Part shown: piece by piece, positions 35,456 through 48,586 of the stretch | How positions within the stretch are numbered: the first letter of the stretch is position 1 | Layout: every line of letters begins with the position of its first letter | Assembly: GCF_000429725.1 (NCBI RefSeq) | Contig: NZ_AUCK01000015.1 | Coordinates: 1-64,000 of the forward strand | Direction: 5' to 3' | DNA: 64,000 bases | Source: Alkalicoccus chagannorensis DSM 18086 | GTDB taxonomy: Bacteria > Bacillota > Bacilli > Bacillales > Salisediminibacteriaceae | The notes under the pieces: generated by a model | What the model was told of the DNA's origin: nothing | The model's database searches: none | What the model saw: only the letters and a program-made list of their open reading frames with translations | Position numbers and translations under genes: made by a program

Positions 35456-36202
35456 ATGAGTTCATGGAACGGAAAAACAGTCGTTATTACTGGTGCAAGC
35501 AGTGGAATCGGCGAAGCGACGGCAGAGCGCTTCGTTCAGGAAGGCGCGAATGTGGTTCTCGGGGCCCGCCGGGAAGAGCGGCTGCAGGAAATCCAGTCCA
35601 AGCTGTCCGGTGAACCTGGTGAGGTGTCATATCAAAGCGTGGATGTGACGTCCCAGGAGCAGGTGGAGAGCCTGATTCAGCATGCCATAGATAAGTTCGG
35701 CCAGGTGGACGTGCTGTTCAATAATGCTGGTCTGATGCCGCTCAGCTTTATGAAAAACAAAAAAGTAGATGAGTGGGAGCAGATGGTTGATGTGAATATC
35801 AAAGGGGTGCTGTACGGAGTCGGCGCTGTCCTTCCACACATGCTGGAGCGTAACGAAGGGCACATCATTACGACGTCGTCCATCGCCGGACATGAAATTA
35901 TGCCGGCAGGAGCAGTTTACTGCGGCACGAAGTTTGCGGCCCGGGTAATCATGGAAGGGCTCGGCAAGGAAGTCGCGCAGAGTAACGTCCGTACGACCAG
36001 CATCTCGCCGGGGATTGTCGAAACAGAGCTGATGAGTACCATCACGGATGAAGACGTACACGACATGCTGAAGAACTGGAACATGGATGAGCTGACGCCG
36101 CTGCAGAGCAAAGACATTGCGGAAGCTGTTTTCTACACGGTAAACCAGCCGCAGCACGTCGATGTGAACGAAGTCATCGTCCGACCGAACAACCAGGGCT
36201 GA
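35456..36202 (+). CDS. Short-chain dehydrogenase/reductase
   Basis: A 248-residue classical SDR. Cofactor loop TGASSGIGEAT, then VDVTSQEQV, the NNAGLMPLS motif, catalytic Ser in TSSIAGHE, and YCGTKFA with the Tyr-x3-Lys pair. The sequence ARREER after the second strand favours NADP. Substrate unknown; adjacent to divergent ectD but with a 320-base gap. Ribosome site AAAAGGTGG. The gap between ectD and this gene contains the SigB-like site and a TATAAT box near 35432. Confidence 0.92.
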   Translation: MSSWNGKTVVITGASSGIGEATAERFVQEGANVVLGARREERLQEIQSKLSGEPGEVSYQSVDVTSQEQVESLIQHAIDKFGQVDVLFNNAGLMPLSFMKNKKVDEWEQMVDVNIKGVLYGVGAVLPHMLERNEGHIITTSSIAGHEIMPAGAVYCGTKFAARVIMEGLGKEVAQSNVRTTSISPGIVETELMSTITDEDVHDMLKNWNMDELTPLQSKDIAEAVFYTVNQPQHVDVNEVIVRPNNQG

Positions 36203-36258
36203 TCCCCTCTCAGCCTCAGGGCGGTCAAACCGACTTTTTCACAACTGGACACGAGGAC

Positions 36259-36299
36259 AAAAGAGCCACGCCGGGAGAGAACGCCGGCGTGGCTCTTTT
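36259..36299 (+). terminator. Intrinsic terminator after the SDR gene
   Basis: AAAAGAGCCACGCCGG pairs with CCGGCGTGGCTCTTTT around nine bases. The symmetrical A and T ends make it usable from both sides, and the hpt gene converges on it. Confidence 0.88.
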
Positions 36300-36300
36300 G

Positions 36301-36345
36301 AATGTATACGTTTTTCATACAGGGTGACGGCGGCATTCTCGGCTG
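36301..36345 (+). repeat. Interspersed palindromic repeat, left-end fragment
   Basis: Only the left end is present (ATGTATACG...TTCATACAGGG, then GACGGCGGCATTC, GGCTGCGCGG). It directly abuts a terminator. The rest of the gap to 36711 has GC-rich sequence with two GTGGCTCA motifs and no supported gene. Confidence 0.7.
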
Positions 36346-36711
36346 CGCGGACAACCAGGCTGCCGGTTGACCGCTGATATTCCGGCAGGGCCTGATGGAA
36401 AGAGTCCGTCGTCAAAGCGGATACGGCTGGCTCCATACGCGGAGGGAGCGTCCGGAAAAGGAGGGCAAAGCGTCTCCTGTGCCGATAAGAGTGGCTCAAA
36501 AGCGAGCAGGTGGCTCAACATAGCTGTCGGGCGACGCGGAGAGGCAGCCAGGGGCCGCTTCCGATGCCATGGTGCGGGATGGAACAGCAGGGGGAAGCGA
36601 AAAGATGCGTACCTGTTGGCGTACCTGCCGTGTGCTTCGGCTGGTCATGGGCCTTTGACTCGAAACCTGAAGAAGCACAGGGGATACGCCTTTGCAGTAG
36701 AGCGGCTCTGT

Positions 36712-37233
36712 TTAGACGATGCGGCCGATATAAGGGAGGTTGCGGTACTGCTGTGCATAGTCGATCCCGTAGCCGACGATGAACGTATCCGGAATATCAA
36801 AACCGATGTAGTCTATCGGAGTTTCAATTCTCCTTCTCTCCGGCTTGTTCAACAGGCTGCAGATTTTCAGTTCAGCCGGATGATGGAGGCGGAAGTGATC
36901 GACGAGGAAGTCGAGCGTCAAGCCGCTGTCGACGATATCTTCGACGATAACTGCGTACTTATCTGTAATGTCATGGTCGAGGTCTTTCAGCAGGCGGACC
37001 TTGCCGGTAGTTTCCGTCTGGTTCCCGTAGCTGGAAACGGCAATGAAATCGATCTCTACACTGGTCTTCATCGCCCGCATCAAATCGGCGGCAAAGACGA
37101 AAGATCCTTTTAAGACGGCAATCAGCACAACAGGCCGTCCGGCTGCATCGGCCTCAATCTCCGCAGCGAGTTCCTGAACCCGAGCGGCGATTTTCTGTTC
37201 ATCAATCATCACTTCCGTGTTCCATGTTTCCAT
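36712..37233 (-). CDS. hpt: Hypoxanthine phosphoribosyltransferase
   Basis: Salvages hypoxanthine or guanine with PRPP. The 173-residue protein has the PRPP-binding loop VEDIVDSGLTL, the flexible loop with SSYGNQTETTG, and the base-contacting Val-rich strand YIGFDIPDTFIVGYG with a Asp-Tyr. Length matches bacterial Hpt. In Bacillus, hpt normally lies between tilS and ftsH; here it stands alone, so it may be a second copy. Divergent from the PhnD-like gene. Confidence 0.93.
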   Translation of the reverse strand: METWNTEVMIDEQKIAARVQELAAEIEADAAGRPVVLIAVLKGSFVFAADLMRAMKTSVEIDFIAVSSYGNQTETTGKVRLLKDLDHDITDKYAVIVEDIVDSGLTLDFLVDHFRLHHPAELKICSLLNKPERRRIETPIDYIGFDIPDTFIVGYGIDYAQQYRNLPYIGRIV

Positions 37234-37461
37234 GAGTAGATCCTCTCCTTGTGAACGTTTTTACGTAAATTATACCAATCGTTCGTTATTCCAACGGTTA
37301 TTGTAACGAGGATTCCCGTTTTTGTAAATATGAATCGGATACATACGAATGTTCATACCCCGTGCATAAAATTTACTGAACGTTTGAATCTCCTTAAAAC
37401 GGCCTTGATATTCTTCTACTAGCATGAAAGCAGTAAGAAAGATATTGATGGAGGGATAAAC

Positions 37462-38364
37462 ATGAAAGCATGGTGGATGATGGCGGGAGCCGCTCTTGTA
37501 TTGAGTGCCTGTGGTTCCGAAGATAACAGCGGAGCGGAGGAAGAAGATCCAGAAGAAATCGTCATGGGATTTGTGCCGACAACGGACTCGGATGAGATTG
37601 CTTCGACGGTGGAGCCGCTGGCGGAGCGGTTATCTGAGATTCTGGATCGTCCTGTCGAAGGGACGGTCATGACTAGTTTTTCCGGCCTTGTGGCAGCGAT
37701 GGGTAACGGAGAAGCGCATATTGGTTTTCTGCCGGCCTTCGGATACGTCCAAGGAAATGAAGAATATGATCTGGAGGTCATGCTGAAATCTGAAAGAGAT
37801 GGAGCATCCTCCTACCGGGCTCAGTTCGTCGTGCGGGAAGATGCCGGTCTGGAAACATTGGATGATCTGGAAGGGACCGGTTGGACGTTTCCGGATGTTG
37901 CTTCTCCGGCAGGCTATCTCTTTCCAGCTGCCCATATCGCCGAGCACCGCGGGGACATTGGGGATGTAGAAACGGAATTTTTCGGAGACGTGCTGGAATC
38001 GGGCTCGCATGACAATGCGCTGACAGCTGTAATCGAAGGAGAGATGGATGTCGCAACGACGTATGAAGATGCGCGTGACGTCATTCTCGATGACTATCCA
38101 GAAGCCGAAGAGGAACTGAAGGTTATCGAATATACAGACGAGATTCCAAACGACACCATCAGCGTGATGGATGGTCTGGACGAAGGGTTGAAGGAAGAAA
38201 TAAAAGAAGCCTTTCTGCAATTCAATGAAGAAGAAGAGATGATCCAAGTCATGAATGACGTGTACCGCTGGGATGCGATCGTGGAAGCCGAAGACAGCGA
38301 TTATGATATCGTGCGGGAAACGTATGATAATTTCCGTGATGAGATTGATGTCGACGATCTGTAA
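37462..38364 (+). CDS. PhnD-like phosphate/phosphonate ABC transporter substrate-binding lipoprotein
   Basis: A 300-residue lipoprotein (signal MKAWWMMAGAALVLSAC). The mature protein shows the PhnD fold: VMGFVPTTDSDEIASTVEPL, MTSFSGLVAAMGNGEAHIGFLP, SYRAQFVVREDAGLETLDDL, TWTFPDVASPAG-like loop and DVATTYEDARDVI. It ends without a transporter gene beside it. A -10-like TATTCT lies upstream. Substrate could be a phosphonate or phosphite; unknown. It is the second solitary binding protein in the window. Confidence 0.9.
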   Translation: MKAWWMMAGAALVLSACGSEDNSGAEEEDPEEIVMGFVPTTDSDEIASTVEPLAERLSEILDRPVEGTVMTSFSGLVAAMGNGEAHIGFLPAFGYVQGNEEYDLEVMLKSERDGASSYRAQFVVREDAGLETLDDLEGTGWTFPDVASPAGYLFPAAHIAEHRGDIGDVETEFFGDVLESGSHDNALTAVIEGEMDVATTYEDARDVILDDYPEAEEELKVIEYTDEIPNDTISVMDGLDEGLKEEIKEAFLQFNEEEEMIQVMNDVYRWDAIVEAEDSDYDIVRETYDNFRDEIDVDDL

Positions 38365-38518
38365 GTCGTCCGCGGCGTAAGAGAAGCGGTGGAGCGTTGA
38401 CGAAGCTGTTTTTCGTCGTCATCTTGCCCTTCCGGCATATTCTGGTTACAATCAAACAAATGATTGGTTGTACAGGAAGAGATCCGGCCGGCCCGGATGT
38501 TCCGGAAGGAGGGTAAGG

Positions 38519-39826
38519 ATGAATCGTAAACAGCGTGCTGCGGCAGCATTGAAGCAGACGGGGCTCTTCCCGCTCAGCACTAGGGACGTGCAGCGGGCGC
38601 TTGAGGAGCCTGAACAACATCACGAAGGAGACCTGGCACTTAGCTGTATCCCCGCTTCGAGACAGCTGCAGAGGACCGCCGTGGAGCTTGCTGCTGAAAC
38701 GGCAGCAGCGCTCGAAGACTTTCCGTGGATAACCGCTGAAGCCGACGGGCACCGGGTCTTCCTGCGTTTTCACCGGCCGGTGGTCGGCGACTGGGTGCTC
38801 CAGCATGCAGACGATCCAGACTATGGCAGGAGTACGACCGAACGACCGCAGACGGCAGCGGTGGTCCTTGGCACTTCCCGGGACCTGGACATGCCGGAGT
38901 GGGCGGATCTGCGAGCTGCTGCGGTCACCCAGTCGCTGCTGCGGCTGGCGGACAACGGAGGGTGGACGAGCATTCGCGCAGAGAAAGCCGCGTCGTGGGA
39001 GGTGGATTTCGGCCTGCACGACGAAAAGACGAAGGAGCCGTCGGAGGAGCCGGCCGCGCGTGTGATCCAGCAGTTAATGGAACAGGAGTTAATTACCCGG
39101 ACAGAGGAGGGGTATGCGGTTCCTCTGTCCGGACTGCCGCCGCTGCTTCTCTACAGCAGGGACGCGGCCGAAGGGGAAGCAAGAGCTTTGGCAGCCGTGG
39201 TCGCCAGAAAAGAACAGCTTGATTTTGATGTGCTGCTGGATGTTTCGGATAACCGGAGACAGCTGCATATCGAACAGCTTCGTCAAGTACTGCGGCAGGG
39301 AGGCTGGCCGTGGGGAGGGCAGCTCGAGCATGTAGGGATATCGGAAGTGCAGTCCCGCTATACCCCCACGGACCTCCTGAAGCGGACGAGAGAGCTTTTT
39401 CCGGATGCCAAGCAGGCGGCCGGCGTGCTCCTGTTTCATCTGCTGCTGCCGGATCGGATGGACCGCCCGCCGCTGACCCCGCACCTGCTCGGTGAAGACA
39501 GGGGCGGGCGCTACATACAACAGACGTATAACGAGGTTTGTTATTCCGTAAGCGAAGGGCGAGCGGACGGCTCAGCATGGCCGGATGCCGTCTGGCGGGT
39601 CGTATGTCGGATCGACGACTTCCCGGAAACAGCGAAAACAGCGTGGGAGCGGAGGCAGCCCTCGCTGCTTGCGGCACTGATGCTGAATCTGGCCGAAGCA
39701 GTGCGTGCCGTACCGCCGGAAGCATGGGAAGATGCCGATCACCGCCTCCCCGAAGCAGCCTGCCGTGTGTTGCGAAGAGGCATGTTCCTCCTCGGAGTGG
39801 AGCTGGAGGTCCGGGCAGGCAAGTGA
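38519..39826 (+). CDS. Arginyl-tRNA-synthetase-like protein without catalytic motifs
   Basis: Collinear with bacillar arginyl-tRNA synthetase by eye. The N-terminal domain is recognisable in EGDLALSCIPASRQLQRTAV; the position of the ATP-binding HIGH motif reads DLDMPEWADLR, so both His residues are lost; RQLHIEQLRQVLRQGGW followed by GQLEHVG matches the region before the KMSK loop, which is also lost; the anticodon-binding DALR end is seen in AWERRQPSLLAALML and VLRRGMFLLGVELE. It has 435 residues against about 560, with the loss inside the catalytic domain. Start 38519 has an AAGGAGGG site, and the frame is intact. It should not aminoacylate; tRNA-Arg or arginine binding is a guess. Confidence 0.8.
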   Translation: MNRKQRAAAALKQTGLFPLSTRDVQRALEEPEQHHEGDLALSCIPASRQLQRTAVELAAETAAALEDFPWITAEADGHRVFLRFHRPVVGDWVLQHADDPDYGRSTTERPQTAAVVLGTSRDLDMPEWADLRAAAVTQSLLRLADNGGWTSIRAEKAASWEVDFGLHDEKTKEPSEEPAARVIQQLMEQELITRTEEGYAVPLSGLPPLLLYSRDAAEGEARALAAVVARKEQLDFDVLLDVSDNRRQLHIEQLRQVLRQGGWPWGGQLEHVGISEVQSRYTPTDLLKRTRELFPDAKQAAGVLLFHLLLPDRMDRPPLTPHLLGEDRGGRYIQQTYNEVCYSVSEGRADGSAWPDAVWRVVCRIDDFPETAKTAWERRQPSLLAALMLNLAEAVRAVPPEAWEDADHRLPEAACRVLRRGMFLLGVELEVRAGK

Positions 39827-39885
39827 CTTTCTTTCTGCCGTTCCTGTGGCACTTCCCAAGGCTGAAAGTAGAAAGAAGGCATGAA

Positions 39886-39924
39886 AAAGAGCGGCTTTCT
39901 CCTGCGGGAGGACCGCTCTTGTCT
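39886..39924 (+). terminator. Intrinsic terminator after the ArgRS-like gene
   Basis: AAGAGCGG pairs with CCGCTCTT, with an inner CTCC/GGAG pair and a T-rich end. The rest of 39925-40113 is an AT-rich promoter region. Confidence 0.65.
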
Positions 39925-40113
39925 GCGTGGCAGAAAGCTCCCCCCTTTCTGGCAGAGGTGCTTGTTTTCGTTTCGTTTTCCGGATTAAATCTAAAAAAAT
40001 GTCGCATAAATACCATTAAATTCCCAAACTTTTAGAGGCGGTACAATGATTCAAAGCCGGCCTTTTTGGTTATGATGTAACATGGATGAAATAATCGAAA
40101 AGGATGTGTCTAC

Positions 40114-40875
40114 ATGAAAAAAGCAGCGCTCTTGTCTACCGTTGCTGGGAGTGCCCTTCTCCTGGCCGCGTGCGGAGGCGAAAATAACGAAATGAACAAC
40201 GAGGAAGCAGGAAATCCTGCGGACAACAACGGTGTGGAGAACGAGGAGAACAACGATAACAACAGCGATAACAACGAAGAAGCGGACGAGAACAATGAGA
40301 ACGCTGACGAAGAAGAGAACGGGGAGGAAGCGGCTGGCGACGTCGAGGATCTTGCAGCTGACTATGACCTCGACGTGACGGTCGAGGAGGACGGCGGCGA
40401 CGCGCCGGAAGCATCGATGGAAGAGCTGGAAGAAGTCTTCGCCCTCGTGAGCACAGCGCAGGAAGCGGACATGCTCGCTTTCGTGGAATCCCCGCAGGAA
40501 GGGGAGGCAGAAGAAAGCGGCTCGGTCGAAGCACATTACGAAGTGCCGGGCGTGGAACTGGAAGAAGTGGAAGCGCACCTCGTTCTCGAATTCGACTATG
40601 AATTCGGCGGCGATCTGGGAGATGACGATGTTCATCCATCTTTTGAAGACCTCAGCTCAGAAGAAGCATCCTTAGAGGGTCCTGAATTTCTGACTTGGGA
40701 AACCGATGCCCTCGAGGCAGATACTGCAGGTGCCGGAACGATCGCTGAATTCACAGGAGAAGGTGCCTGGGTACTGGAAGCGGAACATGACGGAGTGCAC
40801 GTCACGTTTGAAGAAGAGGACGAATGGCTGGCCGAATTCGCTTCCGACATCCTTGCAGGTATTGAAGAGGAATAA
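40114..40875 (+). CDS. Acidic lipoprotein with Asn/Glu-rich linker
   Basis: A 253-residue protein with lipoprotein signal MKKAALLSTVAGSALLLAAC, then about 55 residues composed almost only of Asn, Glu, Asp and Ala, then a beta-rich acidic domain (about 85-250) with AHYEVPGVELEEVEAHLVLEF and FTGEGAWVLEAEHDGVHVTF. It resembles the antibody-like accessory domains of surface proteins but no family is recognised. Its linker is similar in composition to that of the glycerophosphodiesterase at the left edge. Downstream is a hairpin of the second repeat family. Confidence 0.75.
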   Translation: MKKAALLSTVAGSALLLAACGGENNEMNNEEAGNPADNNGVENEENNDNNSDNNEEADENNENADEEENGEEAAGDVEDLAADYDLDVTVEEDGGDAPEASMEELEEVFALVSTAQEADMLAFVESPQEGEAEESGSVEAHYEVPGVELEEVEAHLVLEFDYEFGGDLGDDDVHPSFEDLSSEEASLEGPEFLTWETDALEADTAGAGTIAEFTGEGAWVLEAEHDGVHVTFEEEDEWLAEFASDILAGIEEE

Positions 40876-40954
40876 CCCCCTTGCAGCCCCCAGCGTGAAG
40901 GCGGTGTAGTTTCCATGAACCGTGCTGGGACAATAAAAGTTGAAATGAGCAGAA

Positions 40955-40995
40955 AAACGCTTCCGATGATTCCTATGGTATCGTCGGAAGCGTTT
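40955..40995 (+). repeat. Hairpin repeat family 2, copy 1
   Basis: AAACGCTTCCGATGAT pairs with ATCGTCGGAAGCGTTT (one G-U wobble) around a 9-base loop. Two other copies lie at 51269 and 53450. Likely acts as a terminator or mRNA 3' end structure downstream of the lipoprotein gene. Confidence 0.85.
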
Positions 40996-41140
40996 CGCAT
41001 GCAGGGGAGAATGCCATGGCTGATTCCGTCTGCCGGGACCGGATTACAGAAAAAAGAGGCCATCTCCTCTGGAGGCGGCCTCGATCGATCTATGTTGTGG
41101 GAGAACGCGGCCTGCTGCCGGCGCTCCTGCTGTGACTTCG

Positions 41141-41530
41141 TTAAAATGATTCTGAGCTCCGGTCCACGACAAAGCGGGATACTTCTGCACGGATTTCCTG
41201 CAGGACGTCCTCGTAGTCGGATTCTTCTTCCATGTGCATACGGACTTCTCCGTTTTCATATAAAATCAAGCTCGGCAGTTCTTCTGCCTGCAGGTGAGGA
41301 GCCGCACTGGCAGCCTCGGTTCCTTCAACCACGTGGACATCAATCGGTTTGCTTTTCTCCAGTTCGAGAAGGGCATCCAGATAAGCGTGGTTTCGTTCAT
41401 CTTCCTGATCATCAAGAAGCAGAATGGCGTGGAGGGTTTCTTCCGCTTGAAGATCGGGAAGAACATCATATACGTCAGCAGAGCTGCATCCAGCAGTAAT
41501 GAATAATAATAACAGCATGAGTGTTTTCAT
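41141..41530 (-). CDS. Thioredoxin-fold lipoprotein lacking the CxxC motif
   Basis: A 129-residue lipoprotein (signal MKTLMLLLLFITAGC). The sequence HAILLLDDQEDERNHAYLDALLELE, VDV/VHVVEGTEAA, and LPSLILYENGE with the cis-Pro strand gives a thioredoxin-like order. The usual WCxxC is replaced by DDQED-type residues and no cysteine besides the lipid one is present. It could bind a partner but not exchange disulfides. Promoter region is divergent from the transglycosylase gene, with a repeat copy between. Confidence 0.7.
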   Translation of the reverse strand: MKTLMLLLLFITAGCSSADVYDVLPDLQAEETLHAILLLDDQEDERNHAYLDALLELEKSKPIDVHVVEGTEAASAAPHLQAEELPSLILYENGEVRMHMEEESDYEDVLQEIRAEVSRFVVDRSSESF

Positions 41531-41783
41531 GGCGGAGACCTCCTTATCGCCTGTTCGTCCCCTATCATAACTGCTGTGTGCTTGAAAAACAGCGTTGTTA
41601 CACGATTATTATCGAAGTGTCACCGAAATGAGATATTAGTAATCACTGCCGTAAAAAATGAGATTTTTTGCCGGGGCCGTTCCGGAGTGGATTCCTGCTC
41701 GTGAGAATTTGCCATTGTGCACGTTCAATCCGGGGAGAACCGCCGACTACTGCCTGTGGCACGGGGGGGAAGATGGTATAGGA

Positions 41784-41894
41784 AAAACGGCGTCGCGCGC
41801 TGCACGGGACGAAAGTAGAACCTTTTCTTCCCTCGAAAAGCCTGCAGCGACGCCGTCCGCTGTTCCGACTTGAAGACGCTGCGCGATTTTGTTC
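41784..41894 (+). repeat. Interspersed palindromic repeat, divergent copy with compensated arms
   Basis: The left arm reads ACGGCGTCG and the right arm CGACGCCGT, a perfect 9-bp pairing although both differ from the consensus. CGCTGC/GCAGCG and the GCGC right hairpin are retained, but the apical stem is altered. The left GTAT hairpin is weak. Confidence 0.8.
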
Positions 41895-41946
41895 TGTGAC
41901 AGCGGTGGTTATGCGGTATGATAGAGAGAGGAAGCAGGTGAGCGTC

Positions 41947-42597
41947 ATGAAACAACCTGGGGTCAAAGGTGCCGGCATTTTTCTGGCAGCAGCCGTTTTC
42001 TTCTTCGTGCTGCTCTGGGGCGTGTCGTCCATATACGAACAAACACAGGAGGAGTCGGAGGAACCGGAGCCGCAGATTGCCTCTTATGAAATACCGGCCT
42101 CCTTCATCCCGGTCTACCAGGAGGCGGAAGAAGAATACGGCGTGCCGTGGCGGCTCCTGGCCGCTGTGCATCGAATTGAAACGGTGTTTTCGACGATGGA
42201 CACCCTCGTGAGTCCTGTTGGAGCAGAAGGGCATCTGCAGTTTATGCCGTGTACGTGGGCCGGCTGGAATCATCCATCCTGCGAAGGACTCGGGGAAGGA
42301 GATATTAGTGAAAGCGAGCTGACCGATCCGGACGTCATCGCCCAGTACGGCGGGTATGGCGTCGACGCCGATGGTAACGGTCAGGCGGACCCTTACAGTC
42401 TCGAAGACGCCGTGTTCAGCGCTGCCAACTATCTGGCTGATGCCGGAGCTGCCGACGGCCGGCTGGAGGATGCGGTGTATGACTATAACCGGGCCGACTG
42501 GTATGTCGACGATGTCCTGGAATTTTACGAGATTTACGAAGCAGGGTACGAAACAGTAGAACTGGAAGAGCAGGATATGGAATACGTCGTAGAATGA
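41947..42597 (+). CDS. Lytic transglycosylase-like protein, membrane anchored
   Basis: Cleaves peptidoglycan glycan strands. One N-terminal helix (about residues 8-28) anchors the 216-residue protein outside the membrane. The SLT fold is seen in GVPWRLLAAVHRIETVF, where the Glu of RIET is the likely catalytic acid, then SPVGAEGHLQFMPCTWAGW (the usual SAxGxMQFMP motif, here with Gly-His), and PYSLEDAVFSAANYLAD. Three extra cysteines are unusual. Start at 41947 with AGGTGAG. Ends with a terminator. Confidence 0.85.
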   Translation: MKQPGVKGAGIFLAAAVFFFVLLWGVSSIYEQTQEESEEPEPQIASYEIPASFIPVYQEAEEEYGVPWRLLAAVHRIETVFSTMDTLVSPVGAEGHLQFMPCTWAGWNHPSCEGLGEGDISESELTDPDVIAQYGGYGVDADGNGQADPYSLEDAVFSAANYLADAGAADGRLEDAVYDYNRADWYVDDVLEFYEIYEAGYETVELEEQDMEYVVE

Positions 42598-42638
42598 TGG
42601 CAGAATATCGAATGATTCTGTCATCTTTCTCTTTTTTT
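42596..42638 (+). terminator. Intrinsic terminator overlapping the transglycosylase stop
   Basis: GATGGCAGAAT pairs with ATTCTGTCATC (one G-U) around eight bases, followed by a T-rich run. It starts at the stop codon. Confidence 0.85.
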
Positions 42639-42707
42639 CGTTATACTGGAAAGTAATTCGCCGTTCGAAATAAAACGGCAGACTTTGACAGGAAGAGGAT
42701 GATTAGT

Positions 42708-44510
42708 ATGGCACGCACGCGAGCAGACATTCCAGAGCAGGAAAAATGGAATCTGGATGATTTATTTTCATCTCAGGAAGCATGGCAGAAAGCCATGGAC
42801 AAAATTCCTGCGATGCTCCAGGAAGTGCAGCAGTGGGAGCATCAGGTGACCAAAGATGGAGCATCCTTGTACCAGTCGTTAACATCGTATGAAGCGCTGC
42901 AGATCCATATGGTGCAGACAGGAACCTATGCTTCCCTGCGGGAGAGTGGAGATGGGTCTGACCCGGAAAACCAGGCGCTGACGGCGGCCTTTTCCTCGGT
43001 GCAGGGAGAGGTGCAGGCTGGCGTCTCGTTTCTGGAATCGGAACTGCAGCATCTGACGGCGGATGAAGTCACGATGATGATCGCGGAAGAGCCGAGGCTC
43101 GAGGATTTCCGGCGTACGCTGGACCGGGTGCTGGATGAACAGCCGTTCCGGCTCGGGCCGGAGGCGGAAAAGGTACTTGCTTCCTTCGGCGAAGTACATA
43201 AAGCTCCGTTTATGATCTACGAGCGGAGCAAATCATCGGATCTGCGTTTTCCTTCTTTTCCGACGTCGGACGGAAAAGAGCATCCACTGACCTTCAATTC
43301 GTTTGCTTCCTACGAAACGTCGCCGGAGACAGAAGTCCGCCGGCGTGCCTACGAGACCTTCTACGAACAGCTGAGCCGCTATCAGCATACGTATGCGGCG
43401 GCCTATGCGACGGAAGTGAAAAAGCAGGTGATCGAATCAAACCTGCGCGGCTATGATTCGGTGACTCACATGCTTCTCTCGAAACAGGAAGTGACGGAAG
43501 CGATGTACCACCGTCAGCTGGACACGATCCAGGAGCAGCTGGCTCCGGTCATGCGCCGGTTTGCTGCGCTGAAAAAAGAGGTGCTCGGCCTGGATCGGAT
43601 GACGTATGCGGACCTCAAGGCACCGATCGACCCGGACAACAACCCGGAGATGTCCTATGAGGAGGCGTCTGCGCTCGTGCTCGATTCGCTGGATGTCATG
43701 GGCCCGGAATACAAACAGTTCATGCAGCGGGCCATCGACGAACGCTGGGTCGACTATGCGGATAACGAAGGCAAGCGTTCCGGTGCGTTCTGTTCGAGTC
43801 CTTATGGCGTGCACCCGTACATCCTGGTGACGTGGCACCATTCTATGCAGGATGCGTTCACTCTGGCCCATGAGCTGGGCCATGCCGGTCACTTTGCGCT
43901 CGCACAGAAGTATCAGCGTCTCTCGAATACACGACCGTCGATGTATTTCATCGAAGCGCCTTCCACGATGAATGAAATGCTTCTGAGCCGGCATATTCTG
44001 GAACAGTCCACGGACGAGAAAACGCGCAGATGGGTGCTGCTGCAGTCGCTCGGGACGTACTACCATAACTTTGTTACACACATTCTTGAAGGTGAGCTGC
44101 AGCGGCGGGTGTACGCCCATGCCGAGGCCGGGACGCCGATTACAGCGAAACTGCTGAACGAAGAAAAGACAGATGCGCTGCGCGCCTTCTGGGGAGAAGA
44201 GGTGGAGATTCCGGACAGTGCCGGTCTGACATGGATGCGTCAGCCGCACTACTACATGGGCCTCTATCCGTACACGTATTCCGCAGGCCTCACGGTGTCG
44301 ACCGCGGCCGCGCAGCAGATGAAGGGGAGAGAAGAAGAAGCTGCGGCCGCTTGGCTCGATGTGCTCAAAGCCGGCGGCACGATGAAACCACTGGAGCTGA
44401 TGCAGCAGGCCGGCGTGGATATGACGACCAAAGCGCCTATTCAGGAAGCAGTAGCCTATGTAGATGGGATTGTCTCGGAGCTGGAAAGCCTCTTCGCTCT
44501 GAAGAGGTAG
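42708..44510 (+). CDS. pepF: Oligoendopeptidase F
   Basis: Zinc metallopeptidase of family M3 that cleaves short peptides in the cytoplasm. The HELGH motif (about residues 388-392) is followed by the Glu-containing third ligand in FIEAPSTMNEMLLS. The N-terminal helical domain has WNLDDLFSSQEAW, as in PepF. Total length 600 residues is normal. I start at 42708 because GGAAGAGG is well spaced there; ATG 42699 lies right on that site. The MFS gene begins three bases after the stop, so both are likely cotranscribed. Confidence 0.95.
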   Translation: MARTRADIPEQEKWNLDDLFSSQEAWQKAMDKIPAMLQEVQQWEHQVTKDGASLYQSLTSYEALQIHMVQTGTYASLRESGDGSDPENQALTAAFSSVQGEVQAGVSFLESELQHLTADEVTMMIAEEPRLEDFRRTLDRVLDEQPFRLGPEAEKVLASFGEVHKAPFMIYERSKSSDLRFPSFPTSDGKEHPLTFNSFASYETSPETEVRRRAYETFYEQLSRYQHTYAAAYATEVKKQVIESNLRGYDSVTHMLLSKQEVTEAMYHRQLDTIQEQLAPVMRRFAALKKEVLGLDRMTYADLKAPIDPDNNPEMSYEEASALVLDSLDVMGPEYKQFMQRAIDERWVDYADNEGKRSGAFCSSPYGVHPYILVTWHHSMQDAFTLAHELGHAGHFALAQKYQRLSNTRPSMYFIEAPSTMNEMLLSRHILEQSTDEKTRRWVLLQSLGTYYHNFVTHILEGELQRRVYAHAEAGTPITAKLLNEEKTDALRAFWGEEVEIPDSAGLTWMRQPHYYMGLYPYTYSAGLTVSTAAAQQMKGREEEAAAAWLDVLKAGGTMKPLELMQQAGVDMTTKAPIQEAVAYVDGIVSELESLFALKR

Positions 44511-47219: not shown

Positions 47220-47374
47220 CTTGGGATAAACATGGATACTTTCTCATCGAAGGGGCGGCAGGCACAGGGCTTTATCTCTGTCTGCTTCCGCTGGCGCCTG
47301 CTCGTGGAACGTTTTTCCTTTCTCTTCAGAGGGAATAGACAAGAAGATGGATGAAAAAAGAAGGGGGAGAGCCC

Positions 47375-48586
47375 ATGTTCCAAGTATTCTCCGAAATCGA
47401 GCCGCTCCGTAAAGTGCTGCTGCACCGCCCGGGCAGGGAAATTGAGAACGTGACCCCCGATGAAATGAGCCAGCTGCTTTTTGATGATATTCCCTACCTC
47501 CCTGCGATGCAGAAAGAGCATGATGTGTTTGCCGATACGCTCCGCAGCCAGGGTGTCGAGGTCGTCTATCTGCATGACTGGATGACGACCTGCCTTCAGG
47601 ACGACGAGCCCCGGATCCGCTTTCTTGAGCGAATGGCGGAAGCTTCGATGATGGCACAGGGGCGTTCGGCTTCTGCGCTGAAAGAATATCTTCTCGATCT
47701 GGATGCAGGAGCTTTCGTCGAAAAGATGATGTCCGGCGTTCGGAAAGAAGAGCTGCCTGAACAAAGGCGTCAGCATTTGTACGAACTCATGACGAAGCAC
47801 TATCCTTTCTACCTTGCGCCGATGCCGAACCTGTACTTCACGCGGGATCCGGCTGCCGTCATCGGTCACGGCATTTCGTTGAATCCGATGAGCCAGGAAG
47901 CACGGAAGCGGGAATCGATGTTCATGGAATGCATTCTGGAGGAGGATGCCGGACTCCAGCACGTGCCGCGGTGGATGACAAGGGATCATCCTTTCCCAGT
48001 AGAAGGCGGCGATCAGCTCGTACTAGACCGGTGGACAGTGGCGATTGGTGTTAGTGAACGCACCTCCGCGCGGGCCGTGGAGGATCTTGCTGCTTCCCTC
48101 TTTGCCTCATCCGATTTTCAGCGTGTTGTCGTCGTCGAAATACCGAAAAAGCGGGCGTCGATGCACCTGGATACGGTATTTACGATGGTGGATACCGACC
48201 AGTTCACCACGCATGCGGAAGTGATAGATAAAGATGGACAGATGAATATCTTTCTCCTGGAGCGGGGCGATCCCCTGACGATTACACGATGGTCCAGCTT
48301 ATCAGCCGCGTTAAAAGAAGTACTCGGTCTGAGCGAGATCAACATGATCCCGTGTGGCGGTGGAGATAAAATCGCATCTGCCAGAGAGCAGTGGAACGAC
48401 GGATCGAACACGCTGGCGGTTGCACCAGGGGTTGTCGTGACCTATGAACGGAACTACGTATCCAATGAGCTGATGCGGCGGAACGGCCTGCAGGTGTTGG
48501 AAGTACCAAGTTCGGAACTCGTCCGCGGGCGCGGCGGTCCACGCTGCATGAGTATGCCGCTCGTACGTGGAGACAGCAGAGCATAG
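47375..48586 (+). CDS. arcA: Arginine deiminase
   Basis: Hydrolyses L-arginine to citrulline and ammonia. The 403-residue protein keeps the guanidino-modifying enzyme residues: nucleophile Cys391 in GGPRCMSMP, MPNLYFTRDP, the VEGGDQLVL acidic pair, and MHLDTVFTMVD with the catalytic His. A high level of similarity to bacillar ArcA is apparent. AGAAGGGGGAG lies before ATG 47375. Partners arcB, arcC and arcD are not present, so the enzyme may act in ammonia release or arginine use rather than a complete ATP-forming pathway. ArgR-type sites were not recognised. Confidence 0.95.
   Translation: MFQVFSEIEPLRKVLLHRPGREIENVTPDEMSQLLFDDIPYLPAMQKEHDVFADTLRSQGVEVVYLHDWMTTCLQDDEPRIRFLERMAEASMMAQGRSASALKEYLLDLDAGAFVEKMMSGVRKEELPEQRRQHLYELMTKHYPFYLAPMPNLYFTRDPAAVIGHGISLNPMSQEARKRESMFMECILEEDAGLQHVPRWMTRDHPFPVEGGDQLVLDRWTVAIGVSERTSARAVEDLAASLFASSDFQRVVVVEIPKKRASMHLDTVFTMVDTDQFTTHAEVIDKDGQMNIFLLERGDPLTITRWSSLSAALKEVLGLSEINMIPCGGGDKIASAREQWNDGSNTLAVAPGVVVTYERNYVSNELMRRNGLQVLEVPSSELVRGRGGPRCMSMPLVRGDSRA

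What the first reader, a model, noticed from the sequence alone, without database searches (positions are those of the whole stretch)
38519..39826. An arginyl-tRNA-synthetase-like protein that has lost its catalytic motifs
The 435-codon frame follows bacillar ArgRS along its length, including the N-terminal domain, the EHVG segment and the anticodon-binding end, yet HIGH is replaced by MPEWAD and the KMSK region is gone; about 120 residues are missing inside the catalytic core. It has a strong ribosome site and a terminator, so it looks maintained. Such relics of tRNA synthetases elsewhere became regulators, amino-acid sensors or RNA binders. A standalone arginine deiminase lies 8 kb away.
Basis: partly seen in the sequence, partly recalled or inferred. 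Interest (0 to 1): 0.78.

Follow-up and report, generated by a model that had tools for sequence, protein, structure and literature searches.

The report
Catalytically dead arginyl-tRNA synthetase relative
One bacterium carries, beside its normal enzyme that loads arginine onto transfer RNA, a distant cousin that appears to have kept the enzyme's fold but lost every working part that could be checked, and that stayed readable as a gene; what it does now is unknown.

Summary
Window 38519-39826 is an intact 435-codon gene homologous to arginyl-tRNA synthetase (ArgRS) over its whole length; HIGH and KMSK are replaced and about 128 residues are missing. It descends from the second ArgRS ("type 2", my label) that 18 of 35 genomes of its family carry, not from the genome's own intact argS. 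All 10 type-2 loci examined are preceded by a T-box leader; this gene has none.

It is not ordinary decay: 0 of 1080 simulated neutral decays to the same divergence stayed open, codon-position composition is gene-like, hydropathy is kept at substituted positions, and losses are concentrated in the substrate motifs.

No orthologue was found: 1 of 8 genus, 1 of 35 family genomes; in 397 order genomes the next match is an ordinary-length ArgRS at 58 bits. Best reading: a maintained, non-catalytic pseudo-synthetase that works by binding a partner. Function is unproven and recent loss of function cannot be excluded. The arginine deiminase nearby has no shown link.

The parts
38519..39826 (+). Pseudo-ArgRS gene, 435 aa: N-terminal domain about 1-100, class I core about 109-325, helical anticodon-domain remnant about 330-428 (domain limits approximate)
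38864..38920 (+). Residues 116-134, equivalent to the ancestral HIGH stretch; 2 of 17 conserved residues kept
39341..39364 (+). Residues 275-282, equivalent to KKMSTRxG; 1 of 7 conserved residues kept
38506..38513 (+). Shine-Dalgarno AAGGAGGG, 5 nt before ATG; paired in the predicted leader fold
38428..38509 (+). Inverted repeat arms 38428-38445 and 38492-38509 that could hide the ribosome site (only if transcription starts upstream of 38428)
   Evidence: no comparative support
38447..38472 (+). Palindrome TACAATCAA-N8-TTGGTTGTA overlapping a promoter-like -10 (38424-38452): possible operator
   Evidence: consensus match only
39887..39920 (+). Strong hairpin after the gene, weak T run

Best explanation
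A pseudo-synthetase. A T-box-controlled second ArgRS was duplicated or acquired, lost its T-box, ATP/HIGH and KMSK motifs, arginine pocket and tRNA-Arg contacts, but kept the N-terminal domain, Rossmann core and part of the helical C-terminal domain (shown by alignment; fold by prediction). It most likely works without catalysis, as a protein that binds a partner through the retained surfaces, made from its own ribosome site and not induced by arginine starvation (inferred). The partner is unknown; a protein partner is thought more likely than tRNA-Arg because the tRNA contact positions are gone (inferred).
For: Homology. All 18 family genomes other than its own that P0001 hits are the 18 with a second ArgRS over the cut-off; no type-1 ArgRS is hit. 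T-box upstream of 10 of 10 type-2 loci examined; none near the gene and none of the genome's 16 T-boxes lies on its contig. Coding constraint: 0 of 1080 neutral simulations stayed open at the observed retention (45 of 107 invariant positions), minimum 2 stops; GC1-GC2 contrast 0.265 against a simulated maximum of 0.196. Selective loss: 8 of 44 conserved positions kept in five substrate motifs against 50 of 95 elsewhere, Fisher p=9e-5; on the broader alignment p=0.001 at the 90% and 0.008 at the 80% threshold. Hydropathy r=0.48 at 310 substituted positions, 0 of 5000 shuffles reach it. Model pLDDT 87, pTM 0.87; Z 32.9 to yeast ArgRS over 431 residues. The genome's own argS is full length without stops.
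Against: Found in one species only, so selection between orthologues cannot be measured. The AlphaFold model rests on ArgRS rows; without them it fails (pLDDT 39.7). The motif blocks were chosen by me. The alignment method may itself raise hydropathy agreement. No partner, operon or expression evidence. The branch is saturated (about 10 changes per column).
Confidence: 0.55

Rival explanations
1. A gene that was constrained until recently and is now functionless, not yet broken.
For: Single-species occurrence; only about half of the conserved positions outside the motifs kept; a type-2 ArgRS elsewhere in the family (G029) is already split with a TGA, so the paralogue can be dispensable.
Against: No stop or frameshift, good Shine-Dalgarno, gene-like codon-position composition.
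Confidence: 0.22
2. An RNA binder: the helical and N-terminal domains still bind tRNA or another RNA and regulate it without charging.
For: The tRNA-contacting domains are among those retained in the model; LeuRS paralogues with tRNA binding but little or no charging exist (PMC9437257, passages).
Against: Equivalents of the A20-contact residues Phe82 and Asn84 of E. coli are Arg79 and Phe81, and the segment that carries yeast Tyr565/Trp569 (roles recalled) is deleted (PMC8975779). Specific tRNA-Arg recognition is therefore unlikely; other RNA is open.
Confidence: 0.14
3. Arginine or arginyl-adenylate sensor, as first suggested, perhaps tied to the arginine deiminase.
For: ArgRS ancestry; deiminase 7.5 kb away.
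Against: Five aligned arginine-pocket positions are all changed: yeast Glu148, Asn153, Tyr347, Asp351, Gln375 (roles recalled) are Val116, Arg121, Glu220, Ala223, Arg247; the HIGH-loop lysine is Asp124; the T-box is gone; a gene block conserved in the genus lies between it and the deiminase.
Confidence: 0.04
4. A member of a real but unsampled pseudo-ArgRS family brought in by horizontal transfer (compatible with the best explanation).
For: Absent from seven congeners; gene order around it differs there; extreme divergence.
Against: GC3 0.68 is near the host's, so any transfer is old or from a similar genome; no relative in viral, plasmid, phage or genome collections.
Confidence: 0.2

Closest known systems
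Second, T-box-controlled ArgRS of Bacillales (type 2 here; compare the multiple argS of B. cereus ATCC 10987, one of three T-box regulated: PMC2494555, figure-legend passage)
   Same: Same order of domains, 25-28% identity end to end
   Different: Has HIGH/KMSK, arginine pocket, T-box and about 128 more residues
Canonical ArgRS (1bs2, 6ao8, 5b63)
   Same: Predicted fold, Z about 24-33
   Different: Catalytic, arginine and tRNA positions replaced
HisZ-type aaRS-like regulatory subunits (a reference title in PMC9437257; details recalled)
   Same: Synthetase fold without aminoacylation; partner binding, which is assumed here
   Different: HisZ is class II and has a known partner; here none is known
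LeuRS-I and LeuRS2 of archaea (PMC9437257, passages)
   Same: Duplicated class I synthetase, role outside charging unknown
   Different: Those keep tRNA binding; here the contact positions are gone

Membership tests
Functional ArgRS | HIGH motif with catalytic loop lysine | tested here: not met
   2 of 17 conserved positions kept; Lys to Asp124; role of the lysine from a reference title in PMC8975779
Functional ArgRS | KMSK-type loop | tested here: not met
   1 of 7 kept, flanking deletions
Functional ArgRS | Arginine-pocket residues | tested here: not met
   5 of 5 aligned positions changed; residue roles recalled
Functional ArgRS | tRNA A20 contacts in the N-terminal domain | tested here: not met
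   Type-2 Tyr/Asn (taken as E. coli Phe82/Asn84) are Arg79/Phe81
Functional ArgRS | ArgRS equivalog score (TIGR00456 cut-off 261.65 bits) | tested here: not met
   27.1 bits
ArgRS superfamily by descent | Full-length homology and fold | tested here: met
   the fold model depends on ArgRS rows
T-box-regulated second ArgRS | T-box leader | tested here: not met
   No T-box match in 36000-41500; 10 of 10 type-2 loci have it
aaRS-like pseudoenzyme with new function (HisZ kind) | Loss of catalysis with kept fold | tested here: met
   By sequence and prediction only
aaRS-like pseudoenzyme with new function (HisZ kind) | Demonstrated new partner or activity | not testable with these tools
   Needs experiment

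The most novel reading that the evidence does not exclude
A class I pseudo-synthetase lineage built on ArgRS in which the ATP, arginine and tRNA-Arg sites have all been erased while the multi-domain fold was kept under selection for a new, partner-binding role, cut loose from arginine (T-box) control.
Probability: 0.4. Interest if true: 0.62.

Novelty: new variant of a known kind. Interest (0 to 1): 0.45.

Why it matters
Synthetase-derived proteins with new jobs are a known theme, but in the review read here (PMC9437257, passages only) 'arginyl' occurs once, in a reference title. This gene suggests an ArgRS fold that outlived its motifs and its regulation. If other strains keep it, it offers a clean case to ask what a synthetase body is good for once charging, amino-acid sensing and tRNA reading are gone.

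Tried and rejected
Rejected: pseudogene by long neutral decay; origin from the genome's own argS (no type-1 hit); T-box control; defence gene (no PADLOC match at E up to 0.1 for it or its two neighbours). Looked for relatives in vain: genome contigs with P0001 alone, plasmids and phages by protein, viral contigs, class and phylum samples at E up to 1e-12. The profile-based scan kept 80 loci; I read 43 of these, all 517-582 aa, and used 42 in A2 (L170 dropped as short); the other 37 were not inspected for degeneration. The tree could not place the gene. The single-sequence fold was uninformative. Paper searches with no useful hit; 'pseudoenzyme' with ArgRS and 'paralog' gave 0 papers. The palindrome core has 1 exact place and 18 one-mismatch places in the genome (each listed on both strands; the read-backwards control gave 1); not followed up.

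Errors: one search took wrong frames for loci with minus-strand matches (for example L005), and one search failed for the same reason; alignment A1 used 18 of the 25 full-length plus-strand ORFs, in which 45 loci had been tried.

Full report
What is there. Window 38519-39826 holds an uninterrupted 435-codon frame with a Shine-Dalgarno 5 nt before the ATG. The other five frames of the same stretch hold 3 to 12 stops. Sequence searches find ArgRS independently in Pfam, NCBIfam and the PDB. The matches are weak by ArgRS standards: 27 bits where the family cut-off is 262. Pfam's N-terminal ArgRS domain matches 18 of the 19 members of A1; this protein is the one that it misses.

Which ArgRS it comes from. 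The genome has its own complete argS on contig 2. In the family, 18 of 35 genomes have a second ArgRS above cut-off, and exactly these 18, besides the window's own genome, are hit by the protein. It aligns with 18 type-2 ArgRS from family and order at 25-28% from end to end. The eight genomes of its own genus have only the ordinary type; the second match in G005 is a fragment at a contig end. The tree cannot place it because its branch is saturated.

Distribution and place. It was found as itself in 1 of 8 genomes of the genus and 1 of 35 of the family. Of 397 order genomes sampled, 61 had a match at E up to 1e-8, its own included; the next best is a 557-aa frame at 58.5 bits. Samples of 398 class and 398 phylum genomes gave only itself at E up to 1e-12; these samples overlap the earlier ones. 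The upstream phosphonate-binding-protein-like gene has an 81% orthologue in one congener, where no relative of this gene follows. The downstream block (40114-44510) is present in all six congeners examined by synteny, in G007 without a match to its first gene; in five of the six a membrane-protein-like gene of 468-478 aa (symporter-like in my reading, not searched) lies within about 1.4 kb upstream of it instead. So the gene sits at a point where gene order differs.

What was lost. In five motif blocks 8 of 44 conserved positions are kept, against 50 of 95 elsewhere. The test also holds on the broader alignment. The blocks were picked by me from known class I motifs and conserved strings. Yeast residues that I recall as arginine contacts align with changed residues in all five cases. 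The A20 contacts named in PMC8975779 (passages) are replaced where type-2 ArgRS keeps Tyr and Asn. The same paper reports that yeast mutants at equivalent positions have wild-type kinetics, so this argument bears on A20-dependent enzymes only. The segment equivalent to yeast Tyr565-Trp569 is deleted in the MAFFT alignment, though phmmer aligned it differently. All 10 type-2 loci whose surroundings were scanned carry a T-box 62-339 bases before the argS match or start; this gene has none.

What was kept. Random point changes applied to six type-2 genes until 42% of invariant positions remained left 9-13 stops on average and no open frame in 1080 runs. Codon positions 1 and 2 differ in G+C by 0.265, more than in any run. 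This rejects neutral decay for most of its history but not a recent loss. Hydropathy is kept at substituted positions. AlphaFold with 42 ArgRS rows gives pLDDT 87 and matches yeast ArgRS with Z 32.9 over 431 residues. Without the rows it gives no usable model, so the fold claim leans on homology.

How it may work. I commit to a non-catalytic, partner-binding protein. The steps shown are descent, motif loss, open-frame constraint and T-box loss. The steps inferred are partner binding, the kind of partner and present-day function. The leader may carry an operator (palindrome over a promoter-like -10) or an RNA fold that hides the ribosome site; both are single-sequence guesses.

Comparison. Literature seen: PMC9437257, PMC2494555, PMC8975779 and PMC4742068 as passages only; the rest as search listings. 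Duplicated synthetases that became regulators or lost charging are an established theme, so this is a new variant of a known kind.

Noticed in passing
38428-38513: Predicted leader helix pairs the Shine-Dalgarno of the gene with an upstream CCTTCCGG stretch (fold z -2.58); possible translational control.
   Followed up: partly
38447-38472: Near-perfect palindrome over a promoter-like -10; the two window matches are the same place on both strands.
   Followed up: partly
   Followed up: no
37462-38364: Phosphonate-binding-protein-like lipoprotein; a 62% paralogue lies elsewhere in the genome (G000:C7:121089-121916).
   Followed up: no
40114-40875: Very acidic lipoprotein-like gene (net acid excess 31 per 100 residues, no Arg) with no Pfam match, found in 5 of 6 congeners examined.
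   Followed up: no
47351-48586: Arginine deiminase gene; no other arginine-deiminase-pathway gene was looked for.
   Followed up: no
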